A stretch of DNA of 64,000 nucleotides. Source: Owenia fusiformis. Lineage: Eukaryota > Annelida > Polychaeta > Sabellida > Oweniidae. Location: contig CAIIXF020000007.1 in the NCBI GenBank assembly GCA_903813345.2, forward strand, positions 39,699,671 to 39,763,670. Reading direction: 5' to 3'. Below are positions 2,834 to 53,662 of this stretch, piece by piece. The notes below the pieces were generated by a model that was given only the letters and a program-made list of their open reading frames with translations, searched no databases and was not told where the DNA came from. The position numbers and the translations under genes are program-made. Numbering within the stretch: position 1 is the first letter of the stretch; every line of letters begins with the position of its first letter.

Positions 2834-3729
2834 TGATTTTGAAGAAACAAATCGGTCAATTTGAAGCAAGATGAAAAATACTTTTTTGACCTTGGGAAGC
2901 TCATTGAAGGTCAAATATTTGTTTACCTTGAGAATGTCATTGAAGGTCAAATCTATACTCAGATTGAACTGTTGAGGACTTATAGATAATTTTAACCTTG
3001 AGAAGGTCATCCAAAGTCAAATTCTGAAATTCTGAATATTTCATTCCGAAAATTCACTATGTTAAAAGATAGATTGATCTTACATACCAATCACTAATAC
3101 ATGCAGCCATATTTAGCTCTGGGACATTATGATAAAAGGCGGGTGAGACACAGTTAATCAGAAATGTATTTAAACTTCGCGCACCCCCTCATTCATTGGC
3201 CGATAGAAAAGTATACGGTAGAAAGCCGAACGCCGAATACATTGAGGTTGCAAACGAGGCACGTTCTAGGTTTTACGTTCGCTCTTAGGCCACCTCAGAA
3301 TTAACTTAGAGTGCTTAATGACAAAAACCGATGGTAAACCAATGTGAGGGACAATTTGAAAGGAGATGCGCTGAAGAACATGATAATTATGTCATGGGAG
3401 GCAATAGAAATACGCAAAAGCAGTTGTGCTTACCAGTAAAAAGCAGTGAAATCGTTCATTTATTGCAGAGAGATAATACTGATCAAAGAAAAGTTTATTT
3501 TTTTCGAGGACACTTGATGTATTGTATTAATTGTGATATCATTTTTACAATATTACCTTTTCGTTTTCGAACTCATCCCTTACTGCAACATAAGCATTGT
3601 CAAACTCGGCAAACACGTTACTGAATCCCCTCTGAAATTTGAATTTGAATTTCATAATTTATATACAGATAATATCACAACACAAGTATAAGTGATGAAT
3701 GCCTGGACAAGTAAAAGTCACTGACGTAC
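2834..3729. other. spacer or intron left of the last exon seen
   Basis: AT-rich. A 97-codon plus-strand ORF at 3331-3624 shows no domain-like composition and is not called. Short AAGGTCAxx(G)TCAAAT-type near-repeats lie at 2885-3020. Confidence 0.4.
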
Positions 3730-4528
3730 TTCCACAGATTTAATATGCTCCTCTTTAAACTTCTCCATAGTTGTCCCAAGCTTTGATTTAGAGATTATGT
3801 CAATGTTTGGCGATGGTTCTGTCACACCATTCCTCCAGGAGTTAACAGAGTTGTTCCAACGCTGGAGAAACGCAGAAACCAAAGCATGGTCTGTTTCATT
3901 GATGTACTTTAACACATTGTCTGATTCATTCAATGATAAAGATGTCCCTAGATCACTGTTGTCTGATATGCTCAATTCAAACTCTTGATACCAAGAACCA
4001 AGACCAATATTAAACCTACAATGAAATCAAATAAAGTTTAAAAATCCACTAGACCAATTATATAGAACCTTAACATTTGAGCTACGCATTTCCTTTACGG
4101 ATTCTTCCAAAAAGACAGCTTCCAAATTTAAAAGCAATAATTTTACAGCACGATTCAGAGGTTCCGTAAAGCATCACGGTCAACCCGGAGATGTTTAAAT
4201 ATAATTGGGTGAATTTGGCTATGCACGACTAGTTGCTGTCTCTGTTGAATTCATAAAAGTATTCCCGGATATTTTATAATGGAATACATGCAATTAAAGT
4301 ACAGTGCTGAAAGAATCAAACTAAAACGTTATAAAACCAAAATAGCATTTTGGAAGTGCTGCTTACATTTCCTCATTACCATATATATGGTAGGCTAGTT
4401 GATACATATCATGAACAATGGAATTGGCAGTTGCCATATTGAGATGAACATCTTGAATAGCTGAACGCCGTTTACGACTGCCGTTCCTATTCAACTTTGG
4501 ACAGTCAACTGCAGCAATATAGAGACAA
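3730..4528 (-). CDS. two exons (4528-4367, 4015-3730): last coding exons seen in window
   Basis: The first (162 nt, phase 2-2) encodes [20 protein letters not shown] then [20 protein letters not shown]. It carries a dibasic RKRR that could be a furin site. The second (286 nt) begins [20 protein letters not shown] and includes [20 protein letters not shown], with a helix-rich pattern and the R-W-N-N/R-T/S-x-x-x-x-x-x-G signature. After it either a GTACGT donor (3729) is used or the frame ends at TGA 3718-3720. No polyadenylation signal follows, so I favour continuation beyond the left edge. Confidence 0.7.
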
Positions 4529-7500
4529 CTGGAAAAGTAATATTAGGAGTTAAACCCATTTACAGGTGGATAAATGACCACGTTTAATGTTTGGTATTTC
4601 ATATCATTTGAGTTACATATCTCCACAGACACCATAGGGCATATACATGTGGTAAAGTACTATTTGAATTTAAAAAATAAGCAATCAAATGTAAAAAAAG
4701 AAACATTTATATTCATCCTAACTTTTGTATATTTTAGTTTGTTTTGTAGTTAAGCTATCGTATCTGTGTCCTCTTAATTAATATTATGAGCTTTATTATA
4801 CGTGTATCCCACATTTGGGCAAAGTGTACAGCTTAAACAGAGAAAAAAATGAAACCCACATTGGGGCAAAGTGTACAGCTTAAACAGAAAAAATGAAAAA
4901 GCTTAACTAATTATCTATTATATTATATTAACTAATCAAAGGGTGCTTGATCATTGCAAGATTTTATTGGATGCATTTCGTGTTTTTTTCTCTCTCGATA
5001 AAAATATTTGATATATATTTTGCGAGTATATTTAATATTATTCCCTCTGAATTAAATAGAAACATTAATTTATGTTCCACGTTATTCATGTTTTCTAAAT
5101 TTTGACAGTGTTTTTTTTATTTTATCCATGTAACTTGAACGAACATCTTTTAACTTATTGCATTCTAATAGGAAATGGCATTCTGAACCGGTTTTCTTGT
5201 TACACATTAAACATTTTCTTTCTTCAATAGGGGTAATTGGTTTTGTGTAACGACCTGTTTCGATTTCTAATTTATGTGCGCTAATTCTTAGCTTTGTCAA
5301 GTTATTTCTGTCTAATTTAATTTATTTTTCTAATTTTAATTATATTTTGATACTTCTCTGCCTCGTTATTTTCGGAAAAATTAACATGGCTGAGACTCCC
5401 TAAATTACAAAAGGCCACAGCTTTGCTGCACAATAATTCATTACTATCTGAAATATACAAAAGCTAGGATAAGTATACATGTTTTTATTTTTACATAAAC
5501 TGTTTCAATTTGGTCATTGAATTGCTTATTTTTTAAATTCAAAGTACTCCCAAACATTTATGATTTTACTTTAGGATAATGTAAATTGATATCCTAAGGT
5601 AGAAACAGCTCCCCGTATTAATTTGACAGGAACTGGTATCTTTATCCTGGCTAGGACCATCGACATTTCAAGCCAGCAGAGGCCTTTTATCGAGTTAGTA
5701 TCACTCTAGTAATTAACTCTCTGGTGTACTAGTTAGCATAGGGATAAGCTGGCACATTTTTGCCCGTGCTCGGATTGAACCCAGGACCTCGGCATCAAAA
5801 GTCCAGAGTGCTAACCTTTACATCATAGAAAATGTCAAAATGTGTATGCTTTGAATCGGCAAGAATTGTGCTTCATAGATATTTCACACGAACAAATTAG
5901 TTTTCATTATATTTTAAAATTCTATTGAGAATATGATGCTAACAGTTTTGAATTCCTGGACAATTGAGGTTAACCCCTTCATTCACATTGAAGTAGACAT
6001 CTCAATAATGAGTTATAACGGGTTTACAAAATATTACTTTCGTTGTAATAAAATCTTACCCTAACAGGCTTCCAGCTGTACCTGGTATACAATCACCAGA
6101 GACTTTCAGAACACTGTTTAAGACACTTTCTCCCCCTTTCCACTCACCTGCGTTATATATTGTACAATTAAATCTGAAGATTAGTGTTTTATGTTACAGA
6201 TCTACTAAAATCAACGGATTGCATTCCTACCTACATCCTACATCTTCAGATCTTCTTTAAAACTAGATTGATCTTAAAAGTATCAATTGAAAACATGTAA
6301 AGGTATGAGTATGGTATGAGTATTGGTTTGTCGATTTATATTTATTCTTCAACATATACGTATAATGTAATGGCTCCTATATGGACGAGATGTAAATGGA
6401 GCTTGGATGATAGGGGAGGGGGCATTAGACCGTGTTTCTTCTCACGTTGTATTATGGTTTGGGACAGTTGTAGTTTGTTTTCCTTATACCGATGTAAAAG
6501 AAATTATGGTCCCCTGGGGATTATGATCCCCAGCTTTCCTTGCGGCCCTTACTGGCCCTGACTGTGTATGAATAATAAGGAAAATAATTGTAATTAGGTC
6601 ACCATATAAATCAGTAGAGAGTAGGACCAAAATTTGATAGGACCACCTACCCTTTTACAGCTGTATACTCTTTAAGCGTTTTCTTTTTCTTGCTGAGTTC
6701 TGTTACATTTATTTTATCTATTTATTGTTTATTTAAGTTCACAAAATCATCATCATCATCATTAGCCAAATAAGAATACAATATTAAATAAAAACCACAT
6801 AATCCAAGTAACACATGTTAAAAGATTGTACGATTCACTAAACAGATGCCCTGGGTGATGGCTGCACACTTTCAAGAAATACGACACCGAGTCGAGGCTG
6901 AGTATATTAATTTGACACGTCTTGGAAATGATGGTGTATCATATAAGAAAAGTTTTAATTTTCCCATTTTTGTTTGAAATTAATTTAAATAACCAAAATC
7001 TAGGATTCACTTCAAAGTCTATTAAAAGTAGTTTTTTGAGGGGATAATTAAAAGCATGATGTGTGGTTTCATTACTAGTATCATGATTGCAAAAACATGT
7101 AGGAGCTAGGTCTTTTGTAAAATTCTGAGCGTGAAGATGTGGTTGGAAAATAAGATCTGATCTGACTCTATTAAAAATTATTCCTCTATACCTCCATATA
7201 ACAAGGCATCAAGCTTCATAATTTTGATCAAGTTGTTTTAAATCTATAACTTTACCACACCCATAGATGATGTCATAGAAGTCAAAATGTCGCAAAATAC
7301 AGGAGGAAAACCTCAATTTTAGGTCGTTCCCTCTTAATTTAGAAGCTAGGCCCAATGCATTTAACGGATTTAAAAGTTAATCTATTTTACAAAGCATTTA
7401 ATGAATATGTGGGTATGGGTTTGATCTAAAACCATATCCAGGTGTTTATGTGTTTTAACCTTTGGTATTGCTTCATCCCTAAGATATAGTTCGGGGGTCA

Positions 7501-10500
7501 AAATTTCGGACTTAGAAAGATTGTAAAATGTTCATTCATTGCCATATTTCTGACGACTTTTTGTTCTTTCCCTTTGGCACGTTTAATTACATATTTAAGA
7601 CGGACAAAACATGAATGCGACAACTTACCAATTGCTATTAATATGGTTTTGGTACATCTATAACGAATACTAACAGCACTTAATACACCCGACGTGTATG
7701 CTTTACGTATAGGTCCATAAAATGGTCCAAAATGTGGCACCATCGGTAGGAGGCAGTCCAGAATCAATTTCTTGGCACAATCACATGACATAGGCGTTAC
7801 TGCCTCATATTTACGTACGCTCGTAGAAACAGTGGATTTTCCACCAGGCCCTGAACTTACTATTATACCTAAAAAAATTATATAAATCGAACTGAAATAA
7901 ATTATTTGATGTAATTATTTTTCCTAAGTAAGGAAATGGAAACGCGTAGGGTATTTCCGTAAAGAACAACATGATATACTCTCCGAAAACCGCCATTTTA
8001 TTTCACATGACAAAATCACCAATGAAACTAGAAATCAGCAACTCCACTGAGTAGCAAATCCAAACAAAACATATAAATCTATGAATCTGTGGTTGTCACA
8101 GTGTAATATTTACTCTATCTACTCTACCTTTATATATATTTGTACGTTCGCGGGTAATGTACTTATAGCGTAATATTCTCACTGAGATACGCAATACGTT
8201 TACGTAATACTACGGTAAATTGCCCTAACAATACACACCAATCTTACCTTTATCGTTTCTTATACCTGGCCCACCGCTTCCACAAATATTTGTAGGAATG
8301 CGAGACATTTCTTCTCGGCGCTGTAGCATAATTTCTATATCATTAGTTCTGAGAACACCACAATAATAGTCCCAAAACAATTTTAATCCAAAAACCAAGC
8401 ACAATAGTAAGTTTCTTTTCTGCCGAGATTTCTCAAACACGTTCACCGGAACAATAAGGGTTGTGTTTGGCTCGATGTCGCCGATGTTAGGAACAGTCTG
8501 TAATTCAACATATTGCATATCAAGTTCTGTAAGTTACAACAAGAGGTACAGTTTGATTACATGTATTTCATGTACAAGCTTTAACTTTCATTTGATCGAT
8601 GTTTTTGATGAACTTTAGGGACGAATCATTAATATAATATAATATAATAATAATATAATATAATATAATATAATATATAACCCTTATATCTCCTTATCAT
8701 CTTAAGACGGATGCTAACCAAATACATTATGGGCTAATGCAGGCAAGAAAACTAACCAGGCGAATAATACGGAAATAAAAAGTATAACGCCAATGTAGCG
8801 AGTAAAGTTGAATGTGCGACATGTTTCAAAGTCCTTTTCTAATGTAAACGGTATTTTTGATTCATTGCACGCATAAGATTGAATTTATTGAAAGATGGAA
8901 AACGCATTTGATATCAATCTGTATGAACTCGAGTGCGGGGTGGTTTGTCGGAAGAGCAAATCTAAGGTTCTGTGCCCTTATCAATCCATGGTTCGTAATC
9001 GTGAATACAATTTCATCTTTTTCCCCCCTCTTCCAAAGCAGTCAGATCCACCTGTCGTGGCTCTATTGTAACAACTGGCATTGGTACCTTATAATAAATA
9101 TGATAGGACATGGTATAATCAATGTTACGAGGCCCGATCAGAAAGTAAGTAACCAACTGCTCTTATTTTTCCATACTTTATTGACGGCTTCATTACTGTC
9201 AAAACAGATTCCCCGCAACGACATCCTTGCATTTGGAAAGCGATATTAGTCGCAAGGGGCTGGGTTTAGGGAATAGGGAGCCTCGGGTTGTTGTGTGACC
9301 ATGGAGAAGGCTTCATCTACTGCATCTTTGGTAATGTGGGCTCTGTGGGGTGGAGCAAACATTGTTGTCATGCCAGTAAAATCCCACTCCATTCAACCAC
9401 ATTTGACTTGATTGAAACTGTGACTGAACGATGCCCATCATTATGACACATATATCCTTGATTTCTTTGTGTCCAGAGGCCCGAATGAGAAATGAGACAA
9501 TGGAACGTAGTTACCATTGTGATAATATACATAAAACAAATTATGCAGTCTTGCGTGAAAATGTGAGATCATTTGGAGGAATATAGCATGTAACAACTCT
9601 AAAAATCATCTTTTAAAGCCGTTTACAAAAGTGTACCCCTCCTATCCAAAACAATCGCCACCATAGCAACAGCCTCTGTGCTATTATAGAGTCCCAATCC
9701 ACTGCTTGATTAATGAAAATCGTAAAAAACATACCTCGGTTTCAAATGTTGAATCTAAGGTGACGATGTATTTATCTTGGTATGTAACAGGGGTAACAGT
9801 CCAGCTATACTTGACTGCCGTTCTCTGTAGGAAGACTGTCACATTTGGGTTGGCTGGAGATGCCAGAATGACAGCACTGTATGACGTATGCCTGTCTGCA
9901 CTCACTTGTAAATTGTAGTATGCTTCTTCAAGATCTTCAAACAGCAGCTCTGTAACGATAGATCAATGTTTAATTGATTGCTGGTCTCGGGAAATGGTAT
10001 TTATATTTCAATGCATTAATCCAAGGTATACAGTCAACTGAGCAGCGAAATGTGCCGGTAATGCCTGGGTCACATTTGTCCCGATTCATCGGCCGGCGCC
10101 CGATTGAATATTCTGTTCAAAATTGTATAGTTTTGACGAGGATACCCAATCGGCCGGGCGCCGGCCGATGAATCGGAGCAAACGTGACCCAGGCATAAGT
10201 ATACACTCATGTTTTTACATTCCAATATATAATAATATAGATACGTCGCAAAACGCTCGTGCACGTATATTGTTACACATTTTCGCTTTTTAACACGACA
10301 GACTGAAACGATTTTGAGAAAAATGTGCACATATGGAAAATCTTTCGTCCTCCAAATTACCCCCTATATCTCAAAACATTTAGGATGAATAACTCTGATA
10401 TCGTAGATATATCAACAAGCGGTGAGGAGCATCATAAAACACGATTATTTGACATTTTAGCTAAAGAGAACATATGTGTTGCTATTTTTGAAAATAGGTG

Positions 10501-31500: not shown

Positions 31501-34500
31501 AAATCAAAACATATTTACATATACATTTAATCAAGAATACAAACGTTAAATAAAGTGTGATAATATAAAATATAAGGCTACAGTAAGTACATAAAATAAA
31601 CTTATAAAGACGTGAAAAAGAAACGCAGAATAGAGTAGATGTAGATCATAGTATATGTAGATATATTTACACATCTTTACAGACAAGAAAGGAACGACGA
31701 TGATATCATTTTATATACCATTTGAATATAGAAAATGCCTATTAAAGACTATTATAAATATGAAACATGAATCTAGACAGGTATAGTAAAATTAAGAATC
31801 ACTTACCACTTATATGAATTCCAATCCCTTGTCCAAAAGCCAGTTTAACCCCAGACTCTATAGTGAGGGTAGCATTCGGAAGTATAAAGATGTTGCGTCT
31901 AACATGATAGGTATAGTTCAAAATAAATCGAATCGTTTCATTTTTCAAGAGCACACCGCCAATGGCACCTGTAGTATCAGTAAAGTAGATATCCACTTTT
32001 TTATCTTCATTCAGTACAGTAAGGTTGCTATCAGTGTAAAAAGGTGACACGGTGACATGTGCAAGATTCATATCCCTATTGTTTCCACATACTCTATGTT
32101 TCACATCACCTGGATCAGACGAGCCCCAATATGAGAACGGGACATTAATGACTAAATCTTTTTTAGATACAGAAACATAAAATGCACACTGATCAACGCT
32201 TTTGAATTGTTCAAAAGAATTTTCTGCCATCTTGAAATTCTCCGTGTCTATCCATAACCAAGTGGATGCAGCAATGTTTGTGAATTTGTTTCTAAAAATA
32301 TGGAATCTTCCATTAGTATTCGAACTAGCCAATTGAACATCTATGTACCGACCATCAGCTCTGTTGCTTGTCATTATATTGTTTTCTATAGATACGTTTG
32401 TCTTGTAGTAGGCCTTAACCATCATTGATTTGTAGCAGTTGCTGAAGACATTGTTTGTTATTGAAATATTTAATTCAGACTGTTTATAGTTATTCTCTAT
32501 TTGCAACGCGGGATAGGAGGTTGACATATCCCTGAAAATGTTTCTTTCAATGCGTATTTTTTCTCCATCAAAATAGTATGGATACAAATATATAGCACAG
32601 TATTGCCGACTGTTTCCTTCTCCAACAAAAGAGTTATTAATCAATAAAAGACGCCCACCTCTGTAAATGTTATCTGAGTTGTAATACAAAGTGTGATAAT
32701 AGTTATCTGTCATTTTTGTTGATTCGATAGTGGTACTCCCATCTATTCTGTATAAATAGATGCCATGATTTCTATTACTCAGGATTTCTGACTTATGAAT
32801 ATTGATACTTCCTACAGTTTGATGCGTTTCTAAACCCCTTTGAGCATTGTGTGACAATTCTGAGTTCTCGATGGAGATATTTGCGTGTGTGTCTCTGCAA
32901 TATATACCAGAGCTTTTGCTGCCCGTTATAACCGTCCGGGTGATAGACAGGAACGGGTAAGTGGCGCTACCCTTGAATTCAATACCATGTTTTCCATTGT
33001 GCCCTATGTAGGAATCAGATATCATTGTAGAGTTTGCGGATGATTCTCCGTCGGTGTACTTGATCCCAGCTGCGCAGTGTGTGATGGTCACGTGATCTAG
33101 AGTGACAGAGTAGCCTGTTGCTTGGATACCTACGCGTGCCCCTTTTACATAAGCATGTTGCAGTGAGGAATCTAGAGACAGAAATTTAGGGTATAGAAAA
33201 ATATTAAATGCATGCGTGTAATATTTTGTACATTGATGCATATATTTCAATTTCATGTGATGGAAATTACATAAGATAAACGATTATTTTAGAAAATACG
33301 GATTCTCAATAGCCAAAGACATTTTCCAGAAACAAAACAAATGAAAACTTACGACCAGACACAAAATTTAGCCCAGACCAAAAAGAGGAAATTTCAGAGA
33401 CGGCATCGTCTGGTGTGAACTCAACAGCAAGATTACCAACCCCTTGCGCTAAAAGATTACCTAAAACATACATTGTATTTTAGCAGGGTATATTCTGGAT
33501 TAGAACATTTACATCACAGGCACTATACTCAGCATTGTAAAATTCAAACAATACAGAAATGTCAAAGATGAATCATGCATACCATGGATTTCAAAACCAG
33601 CTTCAGCTGTTGCAAATATTATTTTGACGCCTGGTTGGATGGTAAGAGTCCCCTCTGGTCTAATGGCAACTAGTCTTGACACAATATACGGACTGAGATG
33701 TAAGAATAGGACTTCCTCATCCTATAAATTGCAAGTCCATATATAGGCATATTGTTAATATTATTTTGACGCCTGGTTTGATGGTGAGAGTCCCATCTGG
33801 TCTAATGGCAACTAGTCTTGACACAATATACGGACTGAGATGTAAGAATAGGACTTCCTCATCCTATAAATTGCAAGTCCATATATAGGCATATTGTTAA
33901 TATTATTTTGACGCCTGGTTGGATGGTGAGAGTCCCATCTGGTCTAATGGCAACTAGTCTTGACACAATATACGGACTGAGATGTAAGAATAAGACTTCC
34001 GCATCCTATAAATTACAAGTACATATATAGGCATATTGAACCAAGAACGATTCTCAGAGAAACGAACAAGACAGTTCATATTTGTCTAAAGCATAAAACA
34101 AGACATTTAATGATATCTAGATGTACTGAGTGAAGTGGTCATGCAGAGTCACAAAAAAGCCCAATCTACCCCAGGACTTATTCAAGTGGTTTCATGTGAA
34201 AAATCTGACCCTCCATAGGGATATCATTATGTTGATGTATTATGCAAAAAATAATAAATAAATGTCTTCGTTGCAAGTAAAATATATCTTCGTTCCATTG
34301 CTACAAAACTGCTTTTGTATAATATCAAGGTAATCATTTCATCTATGTCTAAAATGTAATCATATTTCACAGCCGGAGCCAACGCCCTACATACGGGCCA
34401 AATAGTAAGTTAAAATGTGAAGGATAACTGTGACAAAATCAGGAGAACAAAGATACTTATCAAATTCTTCTACCGGAACTCCGGCAATGGTGAAACGAAG

Positions 34501-37500
34501 ACATCAGTTGATCCCATTGGCATATGCGAATACAAAAACCACATTGGCAAGATTATCTTTGCCACTTCAATAACCTAGATGCGAGTAGGTAGTTACCAGT
34601 TCTTACCAGTTATCAGTTAATCAGTTCATCACTAGGTGGCTAATTCGGGTCAGATGACTTCTGTATATTCTATTAGAAACTTCCCTTAAACTTGAATATT
34701 CATCAGTTCTAGTGATTCAATTTTTATATTACCCTTATGCATCTGATTGTGTGATACAAAGTAAGGTATGACTAGTAAAAGAAAATATTATAGTGTCCAA
34801 TACTATACGAATACTGGATGGTCAAAAGCTGGATTTGGCAGAATACATGTACCTATTCGAGAAACAAATATTTGGCGAGGCGCAAGCGGAGCCCAACATA
34901 TTTTTAAGGATAGGTATCTAGCTATATCCAGCTCCTGATGATCCAGTATTTGTTTTATTATGTACCTTCTCAATCAATATTATGTGTGTGCTACGATACT
35001 TACATTTTTACAACTTTTGATTTTTTCTGAAAACTCAACGACTTCCGTATAGCTATACACCAAACGAAAAATCGTTGACTTGTCCCGGGATTTAATTTAC
35101 ATTTATTTGAGGCGTTCTTGCAGAATTATGCGTAATGTTTGAATGATAAGGGTATGTGATTAGTTAAGACCACTTTTGTTCTGACTAAAAGTTAAGATTT
35201 ATTGAAAAATGCACACAACAATCAGCTTAATGTTCAATTGAAGTTTTTGTTGATTGAATGGAGGAAACTGGGAACGATATAGATCTTGCAAGATGTGCAA
35301 AAATGTGAAATGACTACAAAATAATGATAATTTTTTGAAGTGAGAAATGACAAAACAGGGACCACTGCAGTGCCATCCACGATGTCCAATACTCTGGTCT
35401 TTTCCGAAAACTGCCGGATATCTTTTGTTGATAGCTGACCCTTTTGTGAAAATAATGGTCAGAAGACTATCTACTATATTTGTTGAAGAATCCCACTTAA
35501 GAATTTCATTTCACTATAACTTGAGTATCGATTTAAAGGAATACATGCCTAATAGTCCATGGTATTACTTCCGAATATGAAGGATCCGTAGCACACTATA
35601 GCGCAGCAACATTTGAAGCAATATTTAAGGAGGTGCATTATTTTGATCATGATACTTATAAACTACCTGAAAAAACGTCCGGCTTTCGGATCGAAAAATG
35701 TCTTTCATCACAAGGGGTCAAAAAACGTAAATATTATAAAATCGTTTTTGATAGCGTTAAAGGTAATTTTTAACAGCGTATGAAATCGTTTTTCGACGGC
35801 GTACAAAATCGTTTTTGAAAACTTTAACGGCGTTAAAAGTATGACGATACATCGGTCCAGACGGCCAGCCATAAGTACATGTACTTTTACATGTAATAAT
35901 ATAACTAAATAACATACTGTTCTTGTTGAATACGGGAAGACCCGATGATGAAGATGAGTATGCTATATCTTCACGTTTCACAGCCCTTCCAAGTGGTAAA
36001 CTACAGCCTGAAATAGATAAAAGCAACACGTAGGAGTATATCATAGACCATGCAAACAAGGGTCTCAAATATAGTATTTGATTGCGTTTTTTAAAAAACA
36101 CAAAGGCAACGACTCGGACAGAGGTTTAACGCCGGAAAAAGGATCTGAGATCACAACTATCAAATTTATTCTTCGAAATAACACATATTTTTTTACTTTG
36201 GAGTAAAGATAGGGTAGCAATTATATATGCAAAAATATTTGGAATTGGATGATATTTTATTTGATACATTTTTGATTTACTTAGTTTTAAACAATAATGT
36301 GTATTTGATTTTGATCTGCGTGTCTTTATTTGTTCTGCTCATCGTGTACTTCTCAATTTTCTAAGCGGAGATTTGTTGTTAAATTTCTCCATCACGTTTA
36401 TTAACTTACTGTCATCGGGTGTGAACTGCCAAGTCCCGTTGACACCGTCTAGAGTACTGACTGCAACAGACGTGATGTAATCAGGACTATTGTCGTCCCA
36501 TTCTACAAGGGGGTTGATTCCAAAGTTACTACCTTTTCCGAGAGCAATGTTTCCTATCAAATGAAAAGACATTGTGAAGTTGTAGGAGTAGGCATCAACG
36601 AAAGCAATGAGCTATTTAAATCATAACCAAAAATCACTCTTATACAACACAGAGGTAATCCAAAAAGGTAAAACTTTAATCTTAAAGTATTTTTTAATTT
36701 GATACAAAAAAGTACTCAGTTAAAGACCTATCTTCTAACTTATGTATGTACGTAAAAGGTAGTCTATAGTGCTGATATATAATAATAAAGGGTGCGTAAA
36801 CAGAGTGCTCTTACCAAAATAAATTTGCCTACATACCCCTGAGACTCTTATCTGATAGATAGAATGCACAAATAAAACAAATGTTTTGCTATTATAGGTA
36901 AAAAGTTCTCTTGAAATTTCGTGATTTTACCTGTTAATTCTGTCCATGGTCCGCCATTTTTGCAGAATTTACACTGAAATGCAAACTCCATGAAACGAAA
37001 CGAAATCACTAGGAAAAACATGGCACACATTGTACGCATGTGCAGCAAAGTTTAAACCAATCAGATTATTTGATTATTTTGCGCACATGAATTATTTGCT
37101 TCTGAGCACTTCCAAAAAACAAACCTGGCAGAGACTACCCTTAGCCTACTTCACTTTGGCGAAATTTCCGAGCTCAAACTCGTGACAAATGCACTATGCA
37201 TACGCTGGTGTGAAGCCTTGGAGACACTCATTTTGGTAAATATGATTTATGGTGTATACTTTTCTGCAGTTTGTGGGAGTTTGGGAATTAAATGTTAAAA
37301 TTCAAGAAAATATGCCAACTAAACGACTAATCAATTAATATATACCAGCACTATACACAATAGATTTCTCCCCGGACAATCAGTGATATCCCATTATAAT
37401 TGCTTAATATATAATATCTTACGAACGTTAGATATATCTTGAGACCAACTTATGGTTTAGTATTGCCGATATATTGAGAAAATCAACAGAACAACCAACT

Positions 37501-38449
37501 GTCAGAATTGAACACGATCGAGTTAGATCGCGGCAATAGAGGGAAAACCTTTTCAAATGACAGGAGCACACGAGAGCATCGGCAAACTAGGCACGTGCCT
37601 TGACAGCCAATCAGATTCAAAGCAGGTTTTTAATTTCTTCTCGAGAACTGCCATTTACGGAGTTGCTTTAGTTACGCAACCAAATTTATAGAAGAATTAA
37701 ACGACCAATCAGATATATATATGGATTTCCTAAACTAAAATAATTCGACCGGTCAGCAAAATCGCAAAATTAGCACAGAAAGCGTTGAATTTGGAGATTA
37801 TTTTTCAGTAAGTGGAAAGGTGAATATGTGATGCTGCTCAACATGCAAAACGGTCCAAGGGGGTTTTGATTGTGCTTTCCTATCGCTTCATTCGTCTATA
37901 ACTTTGCTGTATCTAAAACTAGAGAAAAAGCATAAAAGAATTGATCGCTTCAAATCACCTTTTGTCCAGCCAAGCCACAGCGTAACAAACTCATTACAAT
38001 TTAGAAGACCCTCAGTAGGTGACTCAGCCTGGGGACATCCTCTTTTGCAGGTTCGTATCACAGACTTTGTGTTAGAATATCCTGATATCAAGATCTCGTA
38101 CATTCGAGAGTTGGTTTCACCAAAAATGGCCGACAGCGCTACGTAAGCTGATGTGCATGCCTTTACTCGCAACGTAAGTCCAAGCTTTCCAGTTAGATCA
38201 ATTTGTTCAATAGGGACGTAGTTTGCGTCTTTTGTCAAAATGGTCAGTGTCTCTGCGGATACAATATGTTCAAATTATTCTTAATCCACAGGACGGCATA
38301 AAAAACGGTTAATCAAAATATTTAGACACTATTCACAATATTAGCAAACATATAGCATACTTACCCGGTTGGCCAGTGACCGTGCATCGGTGGCAAACTT
38401 GCCAGGACAGCAAAAGCACAAGTAAAATCGAACAGCATTCTGCCGACAT
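3730..38449 (-). CDS. giant mosaic extracellular protein, bark beetle/Anakonda-like (34 exons traced, 3' end probably outside window)
   Basis: Exon spans (minus strand): 38449-38365, 38252-37959, 36553-36410, 36007-35918, 33721-33583, 33460-33353, 33171-31807, 30867-30763, 30667-29561, 29427-29073, 27840-27748, 27658-27512, 27387-25836, 25589-25516, 24823-24719, 21420-21163, 19901-18557, 18434-18170, 18051-17726, 17456-17241, 17065-16955, 16809-16604, 13858-13744, 13659-13483, 13280-12984, 12817-12718, 12397-12074, 9949-9735, 9087-8929, 8526-8248, 7868-7629, 6147-6060, 4528-4367, 4015-3730. Nearly all have AG acceptors and GT donors, and reading phase matches between neighbours, mostly phase 1. 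The beta-helix blocks with an SRCR domain recall protein bark beetle, an epithelial junction protein in Drosophila. That is family-level resemblance only, since this protein has extra N- and C-terminal domains. It is expected to be secreted or on the cell surface. No transmembrane segment was found, which may lie beyond the left edge. The exon structure is well supported; the family name is tentative. Confidence 0.85.
4808..4895. repeat. tandem duplication, about 45 bp x 2
   Basis: Two adjacent copies of a segment with GGGCAAAGTGTACAGCTTAA followed by an A-rich tail, differing at one base plus tail length. Lies in an intron of the giant gene. Confidence 0.8.
5082..5310 (-). pseudogene. non-LTR retrotransposon 3' fragment (C-terminal zinc-binding region)
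   Basis: The minus-strand frame reads [20 protein letters not shown], then [20 protein letters not shown]. The L-R-I-S-x-H-x-L-x-I-E-T-G-R-Y and C-x-x-C-x(7)-H-F-L-x-x-C patterns are typical of the C-terminal end of many LINE reverse transcriptase proteins. Lacks the rest of the element. In an intron. Confidence 0.75.
6060..6147 (-). CDS. small exon in the C-terminal region
   Basis: 88 nt, phase 1 in and phase 2 out. It reads [20 protein letters not shown] then PGTAGSLLG. It was found only because it bridges the phase-1 donor at 7629 and the phase-2 acceptor at 4528 exactly, and its cysteine fits the alternating Cys pattern of its neighbours. Too short to define a domain alone. Confidence 0.7.
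6960..7200 (-). pseudogene. decayed LINE C-terminal fragment
   Basis: The minus strand reads [20 protein letters not shown] then [19 protein letters not shown], resembling the R-x-x-x-S-x-L-N-x-H-L and C-x-C-x(5-7)-E-T-x-x-H region of another LINE family. No catalytic domain remains. Confidence 0.6.
7629..8526 (-). CDS. two exons (8526-8248, 7868-7629): cysteine-containing C-terminal region
   Basis: The first (279 nt, phase 1-1) encodes [20 protein letters not shown] and [20 protein letters not shown]. The second (240 nt, phase 1-1, donor GTAAGT) encodes [20 protein letters not shown] then [20 protein letters not shown]. The Y-Y-C-G and C-D-C-x(6)-D-C motifs suggest a disulfide-linked helical segment following the beta-sandwich region. 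The hydrophobic stretch at [13 protein letters not shown] is short and carries charge, so I do not call it a membrane anchor. Confidence 0.72.
8629..8682. repeat. (TAATA)n microsatellite
   Basis: About 50 bases of AATATAATATAATA-type repeat in an intron. Confidence 0.9.
8929..9087 (-). CDS. exon: Ig-like continuation with an apparent one-base frameshift
   Basis: From the acceptor at 9087, phase 0, it reads [20 protein letters not shown] and reaches a stop (GGKR then TGA). The next frame continues sensibly with [20 protein letters not shown] and [11 protein letters not shown]. The shift falls in a run of six G and five A near 9010-9020, the kind of homopolymer where sequencing indels occur. 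The 3' border is uncertain: the best GT (after CTCGA, 8929) is not in phase with the exon at 8526. Confidence 0.6.
9130..9390 (-). pseudogene. mariner-like transposase C-terminal remnant
   Basis: The minus strand reads [17 protein letters not shown], then [12 protein letters not shown], an in-frame stop, then [16 protein letters not shown]. This matches the mariner order A-P-x-H-x-A, then P-Y-S-P-D-L-A-P-C-D-(F), then L-x-G-x-x-F. The fragment ends near GGCCCGATCAGAAAGTAAG at 9132, a likely terminal repeat. The stop and substitutions show it is dead. Confidence 0.75.
9735..9949 (-). CDS. exon: conserved S-W-T-V-x-P segment of the C-terminal region
   Basis: 215 nt, phase 1 in and phase 0 out (donor GTATGT). 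It encodes [20 protein letters not shown], then [20 protein letters not shown], then [15 protein letters not shown]. From memory of the family, an F-L-Q-R-x-x-V-x-Y-S-W-T-V-x-P-x-x-x-x-D-x-Y run is a recurring conserved segment in very large extracellular animal and bacterial proteins with Ig-like repeats. It is not a named domain I can cite. The following exon begins with [11 protein letters not shown], the expected continuation. Confidence 0.78.
10059..10196. mobile_element. MITE with ATGCCTGGGTCACATTTG terminal inverted repeats
   Basis: About 138 bases, nearly a perfect palindrome. The left arm has GGGTCACATTTGTCCCGATT and the right arm has its inverse. Inner arms are GC-rich (GGCCGGCGCC). 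No coding potential. Intronic. Confidence 0.85.
10712..10831. repeat. tandem duplication, about 60 bp x 2
   Basis: Two copies of a segment containing GACAAAAAATCGCT, CCAAAAA and TTGACGTCACAATATG. The TGACGTCA motif in each is a perfect CRE-like palindrome, probably by chance. Confidence 0.75.
11205..11436. mobile_element. diverged MITE of the ATGCCT..TCACATTTG family
   Basis: Left end ATGCCTAAGTCTCATTTGAG, right end AGCAAATGTGATCAAGGCAT, imperfect inverted repeats matching the element at 10059-10196. Confidence 0.65.
11446..12060. mobile_element. inverted-repeat MITE ending CTTTAAAGGAATATTCCTTG
   Basis: About 615 bases with roughly 200-base diverged inverted arms (CTTTAAAGGAATATTCCTTG at left, its complement at right; internal AGATGGCAGCT and GATGACATCACTTCCTG arms also pair). 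It ends about 13 bases from the donor of the exon 12397-12074. Confidence 0.8.
12074..12397 (-). CDS. exon: beta-sandwich repeat within the C-terminal region
   Basis: 324 nt, phase 1-1. It starts [16 protein letters not shown], runs through [20 protein letters not shown], and ends with [20 protein letters not shown] then [17 protein letters not shown]. The Y-Y[12 protein letters not shown] segment reads as the start of a macroglobulin-like strand pair. Its donor lies about 13 bases from the end of an inverted-repeat element (11446-12060). The first 60 bases of this exon exist in two further decayed copies just upstream in the intron. Confidence 0.78.
12352..12575 (-). repeat. decayed tandem copies of an exon 5' end
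   Basis: The acceptor and first about 60 bases of the exon starting at 12397 recur twice upstream in the intron. One copy (about 12425-12475) still reads [13 protein letters not shown] against [13 protein letters not shown]. The other (about 12510-12572) keeps TTTACAG and ENSTV then degenerates. Confidence 0.75.
12718..13280 (-). CDS. two exons (13280-12984, 12817-12718): further beta-sandwich repeat
   Basis: The first exon (297 nt, phase 0-0) encodes [37 protein letters not shown] and [20 protein letters not shown]. The G-Q-S-V-P-F-D-I-x-L and G-x-I-x-I-x-F-N/S patterns look like an Ig/CARDB fold. The second (100 nt, phase 0 to 1) continues with [19 protein letters not shown]. They are probably structural. 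Function is not predictable from sequence alone. Confidence 0.72.
13483..13858 (-). CDS. two exons (13858-13744, 13659-13483): Ig-like/CARDB-like C-terminal region
   Basis: The first (115 nt, phase 2 to 0) encodes [20 protein letters not shown] then [18 protein letters not shown]. The second (177 nt, phase 0-0) encodes [20 protein letters not shown] and [15 protein letters not shown]. The N-T/K-G and L-x-N-I/V-x-V motifs resemble CARDB-type extracellular beta-sandwich repeats. I do not recognise a named domain with certainty. Splice sites and frame are consistent on both sides. Confidence 0.72.
13955..16433. mobile_element. 2.48-kb foldback transposon with about 1.04-kb inverted arms
   Basis: The left end ACAGGATCTTAAGAGGTTCT is the exact inverse of the right end. 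Arms pair from 13955-14997 with about 15400-16433. A 6-bp target duplication TTTGTA flanks both sides (13949-13954 and 16434-16439). The 400-base loop contains a smaller hairpin (about 15000-15148) and a tRNA-like stretch (about 15375-15450) with box-B-like GATCGAGACCC. It sits in an intron of the giant gene and encodes no recognisable transposase, so it is probably non-autonomous. Confidence 0.9.
16604..17065 (-). CDS. two exons (17065-16955, 16809-16604): putative Ig (He_PIG) domain
   Basis: The first exon (111 nt, phase 0-0) encodes [20 protein letters not shown] then [16 protein letters not shown]. The W-x-L-x-x-x-P-x-G-L-x-L-D-x-x-x-G-x-L/I-x-W pattern is the He_PIG signature. The second (206 nt, phase 0 to 2) gives [20 protein letters not shown], the last strands, then a new segment ([20 protein letters not shown]). 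Its donor (TTTG-GTACC) is weaker but is the one that joins exon 13858 in frame. The intron between them holds the 2.48-kb foldback element. Confidence 0.78.
17241..17456 (-). CDS. exon: IPT end, cysteine-rich linker, start of putative Ig domain
   Basis: 216 nt, phase 0-0 (acceptor ATTTAG, donor GTACTG). It opens with [15 protein letters not shown], finishing the IPT domain, then an EGF-like piece ([20 protein letters not shown]), then [14 protein letters not shown]. The last part reads as the first strand of a He_PIG-type domain completed by the next two exons. Confidence 0.8.
17726..18051 (-). CDS. exon: EGF-like end and IPT/TIG domain
   Basis: 326 nt, phase 1 in and phase 0 out (donor GTGAGT). 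Cysteine-rich [18 protein letters not shown] and FYGPYC are followed by the IPT/TIG sequence [20 protein letters not shown]. The P-x-x-G-P-x-x-G-G-T and V-x-G-x-N/F signatures are clear, and YRCRFG and [17 protein letters not shown] also match. IPT/TIG domains are Ig-like folds found in plexins and Met-type receptors. The last strand (VKFRYHP) is on the next exon. Confidence 0.88.
18170..18434 (-). CDS. exon: two or three EGF-like repeats
   Basis: 265 nt, phase 0 in and phase 1 out. The cysteine pattern is [20 protein letters not shown], then [20 protein letters not shown], then [20 protein letters not shown] and [11 protein letters not shown]. The C-x-x-x-G-x-C and C-x-C-x(5)-G-x-x-C motifs define EGF-like modules, here similar to the short laminin/teneurin kind. 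They probably form a stalk between the beta-helix region and the Ig-like C-terminal half. Confidence 0.87.
18557..19901 (-). CDS. large exon: beta-helix block 4 and first EGF-like repeat
   Basis: 1,345 nt, opening in phase 2 and ending in phase 0. After [15 protein letters not shown] come about 370 residues of helix rungs (for example [20 protein letters not shown]), the closing [19 protein letters not shown], and a linker to [20 protein letters not shown] and [14 protein letters not shown], an EGF-like module of the teneurin/Delta type. The chosen acceptor (TTCAAAAG) is the only AG between the coding sequence and an upstream in-frame stop, but it does not match phase 1 of the PAN exon. Confidence 0.85.
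19902..21162. other. intron; possible missed small exon
   Basis: No clear coding exon seen, although phase requires one between 21163 and 19901. A C10 homopolymer lies at about 20382-20391. Confidence 0.4.
21163..21420 (-). CDS. exon: PAN/apple-like domain
   Basis: 258 nt, phase 1-1, acceptor GTTTAG, donor GTAATG. Six cysteines sit in a PAN/apple-like order: GCKNG, then [19 protein letters not shown], then GLCQLND, and finally YERQNCEG. The hallmark features are Cys-x-x-x-Cys, a following G-C-x-S-I/F-x-Y, and C-x-L-x. PAN modules bind proteins or carbohydrates. As a symmetric exon it could have been inserted by exon shuffling into the W-x-G-I/rung boundary of block 4. The downstream junction is not phase-compatible with the next visible exon, so a small exon may be missing. 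Confidence 0.8.
21421..24718. other. 3.3-kb intron with transposon fragments
   Basis: Contains a lone TACAGGGTGTCGCATAAGTG-like transposon end near 21588 and a LINE fragment (23848-24190). Nothing else supported. Confidence 0.5.
23848..24190 (+). pseudogene. LINE 3' fragment (zinc-binding region), frameshifted
   Basis: Reads [16 protein letters not shown], then after a frameshift [20 protein letters not shown] and [12 protein letters not shown]. It is the same motif series as the 5082-5310 fragment (L-R-x-x-x-H-K-I-x-I-E-T-G; C-x-x-C-x(7)-E-x-H-F-L-x-x-C). Confidence 0.75.
24719..25589 (-). CDS. two exons (25589-25516, 24823-24719): beta-helix block 4 opening unit
   Basis: The first exon (74 nt, phase 2 to 1) encodes [20 protein letters not shown], a variant of the L-x-I-x-P-G-V motif. 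The second (105 nt, phase 1-1) encodes [17 protein letters not shown] and [14 protein letters not shown], the W-x-G-I motif. Both junctions restore the frame exactly (R at the first, G at the second). The next exon downstream is the PAN domain at 21.3 kb, which interrupts the usual passage to helix rungs. Confidence 0.75.
25836..27387 (-). CDS. large exon: SRCR C-terminal half and beta-helix block 3
   Basis: 1,552 nt, phase 1 in and phase 2 out. It opens with the second SRCR half ([20 protein letters not shown], then [13 protein letters not shown]), complete with the expected cysteines. About 430 residues of beta-helix rungs follow, rich in Asn and N-x-S/T (for example [17 protein letters not shown]), with the closing W-G motif ([14 protein letters not shown]). 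The reading frame is clean throughout. The SRCR fold is split by an intron after the R-H-L-G motif. Confidence 0.9.
27512..27658 (-). CDS. exon: SRCR domain, N-terminal half
   Basis: 147 nt, phase 1-1. The sequence [19 protein letters not shown], then [20 protein letters not shown], then RHLG is the canonical first half of a scavenger receptor cysteine-rich domain ([15 protein letters not shown]-x-V-x-C-R-x-L-G). SRCR domains mediate protein or glycan binding outside the cell. The acceptor tract is purine-rich (TTGAAG), so the exact 5' border is less certain than the domain call. Confidence 0.9.
27748..27840 (-). CDS. exon: W-x-G-I unit before the SRCR domain
   Basis: 93 nt, phase 1-1, acceptor TATTAAG and donor GTATGT. 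The peptide [15 protein letters not shown] then [11 protein letters not shown] is the standard second half of a block-opening unit. In this block the following exon is an SRCR half-domain rather than beta-helix rungs, as in bark beetle proteins, where SRCR domains sit between helix blocks. Confidence 0.75.
27841..29072. other. intron with MITE and poly-C tracts
   Basis: Holds the inverted-repeat element 28019-28493 and C-runs near 28760 and 28930-28945, where base calls may be unreliable. Confidence 0.6.
28019..28493. mobile_element. MITE with ACAGGGTnTCCCGAAAGTAT ends
   Basis: About 475 bases; roughly 150-base inverted arms sharing ACAGGGT, CCCGAAAGTAT, CCTAGGCAGACA and CATAGTATGTGTCATATAT. 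Ends of the CAGGGTGTCCC type are common in Tc1/mariner-related elements. No ORF. Confidence 0.8.
29073..29427 (-). CDS. exon: end of beta-helix block 2 and start of block 3
   Basis: 355 nt, phase 0 in and phase 1 out. It carries [20 protein letters not shown], the W-W-G-S motif that ends each block, then a D-P-S-V-G-A linker. A new opening unit with two cysteines ([26 protein letters not shown]) follows. The predicted donor is GTGGGC, a weaker site, but it joins cleanly to the exon at 27840, giving [14 protein letters not shown]. Confidence 0.78.
29561..30867 (-). CDS. two exons: beta-helix block 2, with an apparent frameshift
   Basis: The exon at 30867-30763 (105 nt, phase 1-1) gives GELVIREI and [12 protein letters not shown], the block-opening W-G-G-I motif. 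The exon at 30667-29561 encodes beta-helix rungs ([17 protein letters not shown] onward). Its first frame stops near 30024 (FKFRF then stop). The next frame takes over at about 30043 with uninterrupted rung sequence ([16 protein letters not shown]) and ends in phase 0 at the donor GTAAAT, which fits the next exon. A one-base indel near 30030-30045 is the simplest reading. It could be a sequencing error or a real lesion. Confidence 0.8.
30900..31204. mobile_element. MITE of the GGTCACATTT family
   Basis: Left CTAGGTCACATTTAGTCCGA, right GCGCAAATGTGACCTAG. About 305 bases, intronic, with internal GC-rich motifs (CCGGCC) like the copy at 10059. Confidence 0.75.
31807..33171 (-). CDS. large exon: right-handed beta-helix block 1
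   Basis: A 1,365-nt open exon, phase 1 in and out. It begins [15 protein letters not shown] and continues through rungs with repeated Asn and short I/V-N-x-S/T elements (for example [17 protein letters not shown]), typical of parallel beta-helix (NosD/CASH-like) folds. A W-G-S turn ([11 protein letters not shown]) and a second [11 protein letters not shown] motif close the block and start the next. Many N-x-S/T sequons indicate an extracellular glycoprotein. There is no frameshift in this exon. Confidence 0.88.
33353..33721 (-). CDS. exons at 33721-33583 and 33460-33353: entry to first beta-helix block
   Basis: The first exon (139 nt, phase 0 in, phase 1 out) ends [20 protein letters not shown], the T-L-x-I-x-P-G-V motif that opens beta-helix blocks in bark beetle-type proteins. 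The second (108 nt, phase 1-1) carries [16 protein letters not shown] and FWSGLNF, the matching G-x-L-x-A-x-G and W-x-G-I/L motifs. The same two-exon pattern recurs at 30.8, 27.8 and 25.5/24.8 kb, so the blocks are intragenic duplicates. The exon feeding phase 0 into 33721 was not found. Confidence 0.8.
33615..34040. repeat. 142-bp tandem array, 3 copies, overlapping an exon
   Basis: Copies begin near 33615, 33757 and 33899 with almost no divergence. Unit 1 contains most of the exon 33721-33583 and its acceptor. Units 2 and 3 keep the acceptor and about 35 codons but lose the exon's 3' end and donor. As 142 is not a multiple of 3, the extra copies cannot be read through in frame. Confidence 0.92.
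34041..35917. other. intron or region where F5/8C exons are expected
   Basis: No convincing exon found. Contains a short inverted-repeat element at about 34808-34952 (AATACTGGATGGTCAAAAGC and its near-inverse) and three AAATCGTTTTTxGA near-repeats at 35740-35825. Confidence 0.45.
35918..36007 (-). CDS. exon 4: start of an F5/8 type C (discoidin) domain
   Basis: 90 nt, phase 1 on both sides (acceptor TTTCAG, donor GTATGT). The peptide [20 protein letters not shown] matches the opening of F5/8 type C domains (Cys, P-L-G, then an acidic-Ile-x-A-x-S-S stretch). Discoidin domains bind membrane lipid, sugar or protein. Only the first 30 of about 150 expected residues are visible. The remaining exons should lie between 33.7 and 35.9 kb, but I did not find a convincing one, so the domain may be truncated here or hidden by sequence error. 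Confidence 0.6.
36410..36553 (-). CDS. exon 3: Methyltransf_FA domain, C-terminal part
   Basis: The acceptor at 36553 and donor GTAAGT at 36410 enclose 144 nt, phase 1 on both sides. The peptide starts [12 protein letters not shown] and continues [20 protein letters not shown]. These are the expected final strands of Methyltransf_FA after WTKG of exon 2, with the (V/L)GKG turn and the W-D-D segment. Ignoring the donor, the frame stops soon after, which supports the splice. The intron to exon 2 (36554-37958) holds no other coding signal that I could find. Confidence 0.8.
37959..38252 (-). CDS. exon 2: Methyltransf_FA (farnesoic acid O-methyltransferase-like) domain, first part
   Basis: 98 codons run from the acceptor at 38252 to the donor at 37959, phase 1 on both sides. 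The pattern [15 protein letters not shown], then [15 protein letters not shown], then [17 protein letters not shown] is the core of the Methyltransf_FA domain (Pfam PF12248). In animals this domain occurs in crustacean farnesoic acid O-methyltransferase and in many extracellular mosaic proteins, where it is probably a binding module rather than an enzyme. Two nearby cysteines (TCKRGC) suggest secretion. The last third of the domain is on the next exon. Confidence 0.8.
38365..38449 (-). CDS. exon 1: start codon and signal peptide
   Basis: The ATG at 38449 opens 28 codons with a run of Leu/Ile/Val (residues 7-15, ILLVLLLSW), ending near the Cys-rich VCHRCTVTG. This is a typical secretory signal peptide. 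The donor GTAAGT follows after one base of codon 29 (phase 1), and exon 2 begins with the two bases needed. A possible AG acceptor lies just upstream near 38477, so a non-coding 5' exon may exist. A second, out-of-frame ATG upstream (38526) also gives a hydrophobic start but does not join exon 2 in frame. Confidence 0.75.
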
Positions 38450-43980: not shown

Positions 43981-44105
43981 CCAGACTTTAAACGCAAGGT
44001 TATGATGAACTGACTCACTATCTGTAAACACCAACTACCAAATTTAAAGCAACAAGCTACATGTAGACTTGCACATATTTTCGTCCGACAGACGTTATAT
44101 TCAAG

Positions 44106-53427: not shown

Positions 53428-53662
53428 ATAGGGCGGCTATTGATTGATGAGAATCAAATCATTAAAAAACATAGCGGTCATAGCTGAAGAATATTACCCT
53501 GTCTAATGACAATTCGGGTAATTTGTGGTCAGTTCCTTTGCTGTTAAGGCAGTTGTTGAGAAATAAGTGAATCTATAAATAATTCAATAGCAAAATGTTA
53601 TTGGTATCACTACGTATCTTTCACGGCATCAAACTGTTAACTTATTTTTGTTTATATTTAAG

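What the first reader, a model, noticed from the sequence alone, without database searches (positions are those of the whole stretch)
3730..38449. Giant mosaic receptor-like gene joining Methyltransf_FA, F5/8C, beta-helix, SRCR, PAN, EGF, IPT/TIG and Ig-like regions
Bark beetle-type beta-helix/SRCR architecture is known, but I know of no described protein with a Methyltransf_FA and discoidin start, an internal PAN domain and an IPT plus long CARDB/Ig-like tail. If the model is one transcript, it is a new domain combination of about 3,600 or more residues, built mostly from phase-1 exons.
Basis: partly seen in the sequence, partly recalled or inferred. Interest (0 to 1): 0.75.

Follow-up and report, generated by a model that had tools for sequence, protein, structure and literature searches.

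The report
Giant mosaic cell-surface receptor gene family
The stretch holds one member, probably a damaged one, of a small family of animal genes that each encode a roughly 4,700-residue cell-surface protein assembled from many kinds of binding domains; the combination looks new, but its parts and its general style are known.

Summary
The observation largely holds: window 38449-3557 (minus strand) carries exons of one giant mosaic gene in the order claimed. Seven other loci in the genome share parts of it; five hold all seven exons searched genome-wide. One (C7:35.43-35.46 Mb, 'p35') gives an open 41-exon model of 4,658 residues, every intron GT-AG: signal peptide, Methyltransf_FA, F5/8C, four beta-helix modules (SRCR set into the third, PAN into the fourth), EGFs, IPT/TIG, Ig-like tail, cadherin-like region, Ser/Thr stalk, EGF, transmembrane helix. 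Separate genes are unlikely; no transcript was seen.

Corrections: the gene runs past the window's left edge. The window copy is damaged: its core F5/8C exon and its membrane exon were not found, and it has a 5-base deletion (30041) and a 1-base insertion (~9024). dN/dS stays near 0.2, so damage is recent or partly an assembly matter.

Best reading: a type I adhesion/recognition receptor family in the style of Bark/Anakonda but not a member (one SRCR, no CUB or C-type-lectin match), grown by exon shuffling into a phase-1 intron slot between beta-helix cap and body. Function is inferred. New variant of a known kind; interest 0.5.

The parts
38365..38449 (-). SP exon: start codon and signal peptide, intron phase 1 after it
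   Evidence: Reading from ATG at 38449, donor GG|GTAAGT; weak match to the p367 first exon (E 0.03), whose own match to p35 is strong
37959..38252 (-). Methyltransf_FA exon 1
   Evidence: PF12248 80.4 bits together with the next exon; paralogs 68-77% identical; acceptor moved 9 bases in frame compared with paralogs
36410..36553 (-). Methyltransf_FA exon 2
35918..36007 (-). F5/8C first exon (about 30 residues), a remnant here; the core F5/8C exon that follows in other copies was not found in 33.7-36.1 kb
33583..33721 (-). beta-helix module 1, cap exon a; preceded by two extra partial copies (142-bp period, array 33615-34038) with acceptor but no donor
33353..33460 (-). beta-helix module 1, cap exon b
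31807..33171 (-). beta-helix module 1 body and start of module 2 cap
   Evidence: PF13229 55.2 bits; 76-79% identical to paralogs
30763..30867 (-). beta-helix module 2, cap exon
29561..30667 (-). beta-helix module 2 body; 5-base deletion at 30041 against three paralogs
29073..29427 (-). end of beta-helix module 2, start of module 3 cap
27748..27840 (-). beta-helix module 3, cap exon
27512..27673 (-). SRCR first half (acceptor not settled to within about 15 bases)
   Evidence: PF00530 99.2 bits with the next exon; donor GT in every locus where the site was read
25836..27387 (-). SRCR second half, beta-helix module 3 body, start of module 4 cap
   Evidence: eight full-length places in the genome, window included, others 60-74% identical; no Beta_helix match in the window piece of module 3, 31.3 bits in p35
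25516..25589 (-). beta-helix module 4, cap exon a
24719..24823 (-). beta-helix module 4, cap exon b
21163..21420 (-). PAN domain as one symmetric 1-1 exon
   Evidence: PF00024 30.5 bits
18557..19848 (-). beta-helix module 4 body and first EGF
   Evidence: PF13229 62.5 bits, EGF_2 29.1 bits
18170..18434 (-). EGF repeats
17726..18051 (-). EGF and IPT/TIG
   Evidence: PF01833 35.3 bits; 8 of 8 genome matches to this exon lie in this family
17241..17456 (-). EGF-like exon
16955..17065 (-). He_PIG (putative Ig) exon 1
   Evidence: PF05345 29.4 bits over this and neighbouring exons
16604..16809 (-). He_PIG exon 2 and following
   Evidence: donor taken by analogy with p367 and C496, chose 16615
8248..13858 (-). 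Ig-like tail exons E22-E29 (13858-13744 with acceptor by analogy, 13659-13483, 13280-12984, 12817-12718, 12397-12074, 9949-9735, about 9087-8919 with a 1-base insertion near 9024, 8526-8248)
3557..7868 (-). tail exons E30-E34 (7868-7629 borders unsure, 6147-6060, 4528-4367, 4015-3730, 3631-3557); the gene continues left of the window with exons at -8426..-8617 and -9046..about -10845

Best explanation
The window holds the greater part of one gene of a family (six loci on the large contig C7, one on C4, one on the small contig C496) that encodes a giant type I membrane receptor. Read from the sequence of the p35 copy: signal peptide, a Methyltransf_FA and a discoidin (F5/8C) domain at the outer end, a rod of four right-handed beta-helix modules, EGFs, one IPT/TIG, a long Ig-like tail, a cadherin-like region, a Ser/Thr-rich stalk, a last EGF, one strong transmembrane helix and about 50 residues beyond it. 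Each beta-helix module has an N-terminal cap with a phase-1 intron at its end; the PAN exon (symmetric 1-1) sits exactly in that slot in module 4, and the SRCR domain begins at it in module 3. Inferred: the family was built by exon shuffling into that slot. Inferred: the protein stands far out from the cell and uses Methyltransf_FA, F5/8C, SRCR and PAN as binding patches for cell adhesion or recognition of non-self (my split: recognition 0.45, junctional or homophilic adhesion 0.3, other 0.25). In the copy in this window the F5/8C core exon and the membrane exon were not found and two indels break the frame, so it is most likely a recently damaged copy; copies without such lesions exist.
For: Collinear exon chain window/p35 of 38 blocks, shuffles and opposite strand far lower. 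All 35 exon queries (34 from the window model plus the F5/8C core exon of p35) found in order in p35 and in p367, 26 of 35 in C496 (24 in its first unit, two in its second, which ends with the contig). 34 of 34 intron phases agree between p35 and p367; p367 34 of 34 and p35 40 of 40 introns GT-AG. p35: 41 exons, 4,658 residues without a stop. Pfam on p35 and on the window. Seven exons searched genome-wide, Methyltransf_FA, F5/8C core (101), SRCR/beta-helix (14), TIG (102), tail E26 (24), E36 with the cadherin-like part (79), membrane exon (82), meet in the same order at five loci. dN/dS 0.20-0.28 for 27 of 28 pairs of the SRCR/beta-helix exon, the last pair being identical. Profile comparison of modules: M1-M4 97%, M2-M4 97%, M1-M2 92%; caps 71-97% for five of six pairs; controls 2% or less. 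Hydropathy: one strong membrane window at 4584 of p35.
Against: No transcript or protein evidence. Exon borders are from homology and a simple splice model; 12 of 35 exons differ in length between p35 and p367, a few of them (E10, E27, E30, E33, E34) from unsettled borders, and the last two p35 exons were placed by hand. Module 3's body matches the others weakly (M1-M3 38%, M2-M3 18%, M3-M4 9%) and cap pair C1-C3 only 2%; regular beta-helix repeats may also resemble each other without common descent. A second, weaker hydrophobic stretch lies in the tail at 3361 of p35, just after a basic RQKR, and could be membrane-associated. The membrane exon was read for p35 and the neighbour; for other copies only a match was seen. 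The structure job never finished. Function is untested. The window copy's low dN/dS argues that it worked until recently or that some lesions are assembly errors.
Confidence: 0.8

Rival explanations
1. Two or three neighbouring genes (a Methyltransf_FA/F5/8C gene, a Bark-like beta-helix gene, an EGF/TIG/Ig gene) that lie next to each other and were duplicated together.
For: The intron between the F5/8C exon and the first cap is the longest in p35 (3,373 bases), and one locus (C7:37.447-37.459 Mb) has matches to tail exons E26 and E36 and the membrane exon but none to Methyltransf_FA, F5/8C core, SRCR/beta-helix or TIG exons, so the tail can occur apart.
Against: F5/8C spans two exons, and the frame runs on through all 40 p35 introns without a stop. 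The only signal peptide I saw is before Methyltransf_FA and the only strong membrane helix is at the far end. The order is kept in the C7:39.66 copy, whose synonymous divergence from the others is about 1. I did not search the long introns for promoters or further first exons.
Confidence: 0.08
2. The window copy is intact in the animal and its lesions are assembly or haplotype errors.
For: dN/dS of the window copy against p35 and p367 is 0.09-0.33 by domain group, close to the 0.10-0.32 between p35 and p367; one lesion is a homopolymer length change.
Against: Four lesions of different kinds; a 5-base deletion and two exons not found, with no N in the gene or its left flank, are unusual for assembly error. 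In the E20-E28 group the window's ratio is higher (0.23-0.24 against 0.14), though one exon there was read across the insertion.
Confidence: 0.2
3. The window copy is a functional variant: a shortened or secreted form without the discoidin core and the membrane anchor.
For: Constraint persists over all eight domain groups; the last large exon stays open to a stop after its Ser/Thr-rich part.
Against: The exon before the missing one ends in phase 1 and the next begins in phase 0, so simple skipping breaks the frame; two indels break it further on.
Confidence: 0.12

Closest known systems
Bark beetle / Anakonda (Aka, Drosophila) and SpBark (mud crab)
   Same: Very large type I membrane protein with right-handed parallel beta-helices and SRCR domains outside the cell. 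Aka: signal peptide, SRCR, CUB, beta-helices, C-type-lectin-like domain, triple-repeat ectodomain (PMC11698045, passages); Bark/Anakonda listed as SRCR plus parallel beta-helix (PMC8006247, passages); SpBark 2,863 residues, three SRCR, one CTLD, one transmembrane region (PMC6716108, passages).
   Different: Here four modules, one SRCR instead of three, PAN in one module, no CUB or C-type-lectin match; plus Methyltransf_FA, F5/8C, EGF, TIG, Ig-like, cadherin-like and Ser/Thr-rich parts and 4,658 residues.
Fibrocystin / PKHD1L1 (recalled from memory)
   Same: Giant receptor-like proteins that combine IPT/TIG with beta-helix repeats and a membrane helix.
   Different: Those have many IPT/TIG and G8 domains (recalled); here one TIG and no G8 or PA14 match.
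Proteins with Pfam 12248 (FAMeT; abalone shell-matrix UP5)
   Same: Share the Methyltransf_FA domain (PMC10015273, PMC6003135, passages).
   Different: FAMeTs have tandem pfam12248 or pfam12248-DUF3421 in crustaceans and insects; their capacity to methylate was never reliably shown in vitro (PMC10015273). Here it is an N-terminal ectodomain module.
Expanded invertebrate SRCR superfamily
   Same: Multi-domain SRCR proteins, expanded in several invertebrates (PMC10855680, passages).
   Different: The main text of that survey holds no occurrence of bark beetle, beta helix, Methyltransf or PAN; its supplementary tables were not read.

Membership tests
Bark/Anakonda | Right-handed parallel beta-helix repeats in the ectodomain | tested here: met
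   PF13229 above cut-off in four p35 pieces; modules compared
Bark/Anakonda | Triple-repeat ectodomain with three SRCR domains (three in SpBark) | tested here: not met
   Four beta-helix pieces; SRCR above cut-off in one only
Bark/Anakonda | CUB domains | tested here: not met
   No CUB match at E 0.5 in nine p35 pieces; 233 of 4,658 residues were left out of those pieces
Bark/Anakonda | C-type-lectin-like domain | tested here: not met
   No lectin match in the same nine pieces; EGF lies before the membrane helix
Bark/Anakonda | Signal peptide and single transmembrane helix | tested here: inconclusive
   Signal peptide by eye; one strong hydropathy window at 4584 and a weaker one at 3361; no dedicated predictor was available
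Bark/Anakonda | Homophilic adhesion at cell vertices | not testable with these tools
   needs cell assays
Fibrocystin/PKHD1L1 | Multiple IPT/TIG domains and G8 domains (recalled) | tested here: not met
   One TIG stretch, no G8
SRCR superfamily protein | At least one SRCR domain above Pfam's cut-off | tested here: met
   99.2 bits in the window, 94.9 in p35
FAMeT | Tandem pfam12248 or pfam12248-DUF3421 | tested here: not met
   One pfam12248 at the head of a mosaic; no DUF3421 match

The most novel reading that the evidence does not exclude
A class of giant mosaic receptors not yet described, in which the phase-1 intron between each beta-helix cap and its body is a standing docking slot: different binding domains (none, SRCR, PAN here; SRCR and CUB perhaps in Bark) are swapped into a repeated rod, so that Bark/Anakonda and this family would be two outcomes of one modular construction plan, and this lineage turned it into a multi-copy family diversified by conversion between copies.
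Probability: 0.3. Interest if true: 0.7.

Novelty: new variant of a known kind. Interest (0 to 1): 0.5.

Why it matters
It gives an exon-by-exon picture of how a giant adhesion/recognition receptor can be built: a repeated beta-helix rod with a fixed intron slot into which other domains were set. That makes a testable claim about the origin of Bark-type proteins (look for the same slot in Bark genes) and adds a Methyltransf_FA/discoidin head and an Ig-cadherin-stalk tail to that plan. The family also offers natural variants, from open to damaged to tail-only, within one genome.

Tried and rejected
Raw frame-by-frame Pfam scan of 3-18 kb (two of three frames) gave only TIG above cut-off, so I went to spliced models. 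Rfam: nothing at gathering threshold. I first took the moved Methyltransf_FA acceptor and the donor of the SRCR first-half exon for lesions; the former moves 9 bases in frame and the latter is a normal GT, so neither is counted. A first dN/dS run was void because loci were not turned to the gene's strand; repeated correctly. PDB search of the large tail exon gave cadherin-23 and protocadherin-15 at E 0.003 for its end, then only weaker rows. I looked for a SEA domain before the last EGF because the exon looked like one; Pfam gave none, so I do not claim it. Orthologs in other animals could not be sought: the genome tools hold prokaryotes and the window's own assembly only.

Full report
What was checked. 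The finding places a giant mosaic gene at 3730-38449. The longest open frames of the region are on the minus strand.

Paralogs as judges. A search of the genome with the SRCR/beta-helix exon (25835-27403) gave 35 matches, eight of them full-length: the window itself and, at 60-74% identity, C7:35.45, C7:36.72, C7:36.99, C7:39.66 (opposite strand, the window gene's neighbour), C4:4.95 and two on the 58-kb contig C496. I fetched C7:35.42-35.47 ('p35'), C7:36.685-36.732 ('p367') and C496 and parts of the neighbour. Minus-strand frames of the window against p35 form a chain of 38 collinear blocks (3,945 residues) from 38274 to 3554; p367 gives the same chain, with extra short hits in 13.9-16.5 kb that I take for repeats; C496 does so up to its end, with some noise. 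Controls: 5,776 bits for the real chain against at most 24 bits in three shuffles and 150 bits for the opposite strand.

Gene models. A dynamic-programming splice model seeded with these blocks gave 34 window exons; two of them (E4, E28) were in a wrong or broken frame there. E4, E5, E11 and the Methyltransf_FA acceptor were mended in the model; E28 carries the insertion. The same exons, plus one that the window lacks, were found in order in p35 (35 of 35), p367 (35 of 35) and C496 (26 of 35: 24 in its first unit, two at the end of its second). Models for p35 and p367 have no stop codon, and the phases of all 34 compared introns agree, though 12 of 35 exons differ in length between them. With its first exon (signal peptide) and last exons, p35 gives 41 exons, 40 of 40 introns GT-AG and 4,658 residues from start to stop. 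Some tail borders are unsettled, and the last exons were placed by hand. Hydropathy of that protein shows one strong window (3.63, at 4584) and a weaker one (1.76, at 3361, after RQKR).

Domains. On nine pieces of p35 (233 of 4,658 residues not included), above Pfam's cut-off: Methyltransf_FA 79.8 bits, F5_F8_type_C 60.0, Beta_helix 55.2, 32.6, 31.3 and 56.2 in four pieces, SRCR 94.9, PAN_1 23.1 (cut-off 21.4), EGF_2 and EGF_Teneurin, TIG 39.8. Below cut-off: He_PIG 23.3 (24.0; but 29.4 in the window), CARDB 16.1 (22.7), Cadherin 19.9 (28.8, E 0.001), DUF11 16.8, CarboxypepD_reg 19.5. On the window's own pieces: Methyltransf_FA 80.4, Beta_helix 55.2 (module 1) and 62.5 (module 4), SRCR 99.2, PAN_1 30.5, TIG 35.3, He_PIG 29.4; the F5/8C remnant, the second part of module 2 and the module 3 piece gave no Beta_helix or F5/8C match.

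Do head, middle and tail belong together? Whole-genome exon searches (candidate lists are capped): Methyltransf_FA 76 matches, 8 in this family; F5/8C core exon 12 matches, 7 strong ones (74-100%), all in this family, none in the window gene, and 5 weak ones elsewhere; TIG exon 8 of 8 in this family; tail exon E26 7 loci; E36 7 loci; membrane exon 6 of 6 in this family, none for the window gene. Five loci (C7:35.45, 36.72, 36.99, 39.66 and C4:4.95) hold all seven tested exons in one order. C496 holds the first four. The window gene holds five of seven. C7:37.447-37.459 has only E26, E36 and the membrane exon. The neighbour C7:39.66, whose synonymous divergence from the rest is about 1, keeps the order also for the intermediate exons that were read. 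This makes separate genes unlikely; no transcript was seen.

The window copy. Against p35, p367 and C496 it lacks five bases in beta-helix module 2 at 30041; against p35 and p367 it has one extra base in a G run near 9024. The exon with the core of F5/8C was not found; because the exon before it ends in phase 1 and the exon after it starts in phase 0, skipping it breaks the frame. Left of the window the gene continues with E35 and E36, but no membrane exon was found on this strand; the ones seen there belong to the convergent neighbour. Neither the gene nor the flank read holds an N. dN/dS of the SRCR/beta-helix exon is 0.20-0.28 in 27 of 28 pairs, the remaining pair being identical. Over eight domain groups it is 0.09-0.33 for the window against p35 or p367, and 0.10-0.32 between p35 and p367; the window is higher in E20-E28 (0.23-0.24 against 0.14), where one exon was read across the insertion. 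So loss is recent, or some lesions are assembly errors.

How it was built. Profile comparisons support homology of beta-helix modules 1, 2 and 4 (92-97% probability) and of the caps of modules 2, 3 and 4 (92-97%); module 3's body matches weakly (9-38%), and cap 1 matches cap 3 at 2% only; controls against the tail stay at or below 2%. In module 4 the PAN exon, 258 bases and symmetric, lies between cap and body; in module 3 SRCR begins at that place and its far border has no intron. I infer insertion by exon shuffling.

What it does. The nearest described proteins are Bark/Anakonda, a homophilic adhesion protein of tricellular junctions (PMC11698045 and PMC8006247, passages), and SpBark, a crab blood-cell receptor that binds microbes (PMC6716108, passages). 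The p35 protein is of that style by its beta-helix/SRCR rod and membrane helix, but fails the tests for three SRCR, CUB and C-type lectin. I infer a type I receptor for adhesion or recognition. Copy number, with six of eight loci in the last 4.4 Mb of C7, and uneven synonymous divergence between exons (below 0.1 to above 2, noisy in short exons), which suggests conversion between copies, lean towards recognition; nothing here shows positive selection.

Print. Searches for the combination and for relatives listed no paper that, by title, abstract start or the passages I saw, describes it; only open-licence PubMed Central papers were searched, and no animal protein database was at hand.

Noticed in passing
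window 60001-64000 and L041/L042 (to C7:39776147): After a 500-N gap lies a (CCCTAA)n array of about 13.2 kb with 1,681 CCCTAA and no TTAGGG on the + strand, followed by other sequence to the contig's end: the terminal piece of the scaffold seems to be joined in inverted orientation.
   Followed up: partly
window 33615-34038; p367 (L046): Partial tandem copies of beta-helix cap exon E4 with its acceptor but no donor: 142-bp unit, three copies in the window, two in p367, one in p35 (the last of each being the full exon).
   Followed up: partly
L037 (C496:23864-25061): Similar array of about eight copies, about 131 bp apart, matching the EGF-like exon E19 in the C496 copy; only the last matches the exon at full length.
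   Followed up: no
C496 (L035-L040): A 58-kb contig with two units 29.9 kb apart that are 99.97% identical over 27.3 kb: very recent duplication or assembly artefact.
   Followed up: partly
C7:36.69-36.73 and C7:36.97-37.01 Mb: Two copies of the gene about 275 kb apart with 99.2% identical E12 proteins and dS 0.015: recent duplication or an unpurged haplotype.
   Followed up: no
   Followed up: partly
family loci, exon by exon: Synonymous divergence between copies varies about tenfold along the gene (window against C496: 0.13 in E4, 1.14 in E16), as gene conversion would leave it.
   Followed up: partly
p35 model residue 3361 (exon E29): A hydrophobic stretch (hydropathy 1.76) directly after a basic RQKR, in the middle of the tail: possible cleavage site or membrane-associated piece.
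   Followed up: no
window 44067-44897 (+), repeats to 45260: Short-chain dehydrogenase in one open frame (PF13561 185.7 bits) followed by a tandem array of about 150-bp units resembling its 3' end, with stop codons.
   Followed up: partly
window 58800-59357 (+): Reverse transcriptase fragment (RVT_1 98.1 bits) among overlapping frames, probably a degraded retroelement.
   Followed up: no
C9:19946283-19961040: Nineteen Methyltransf_FA matches within 15 kb elsewhere in the genome.
   Followed up: no
window 53662-54957 (+): 432-residue open frame without a Pfam match at E 0.05.
   Followed up: no
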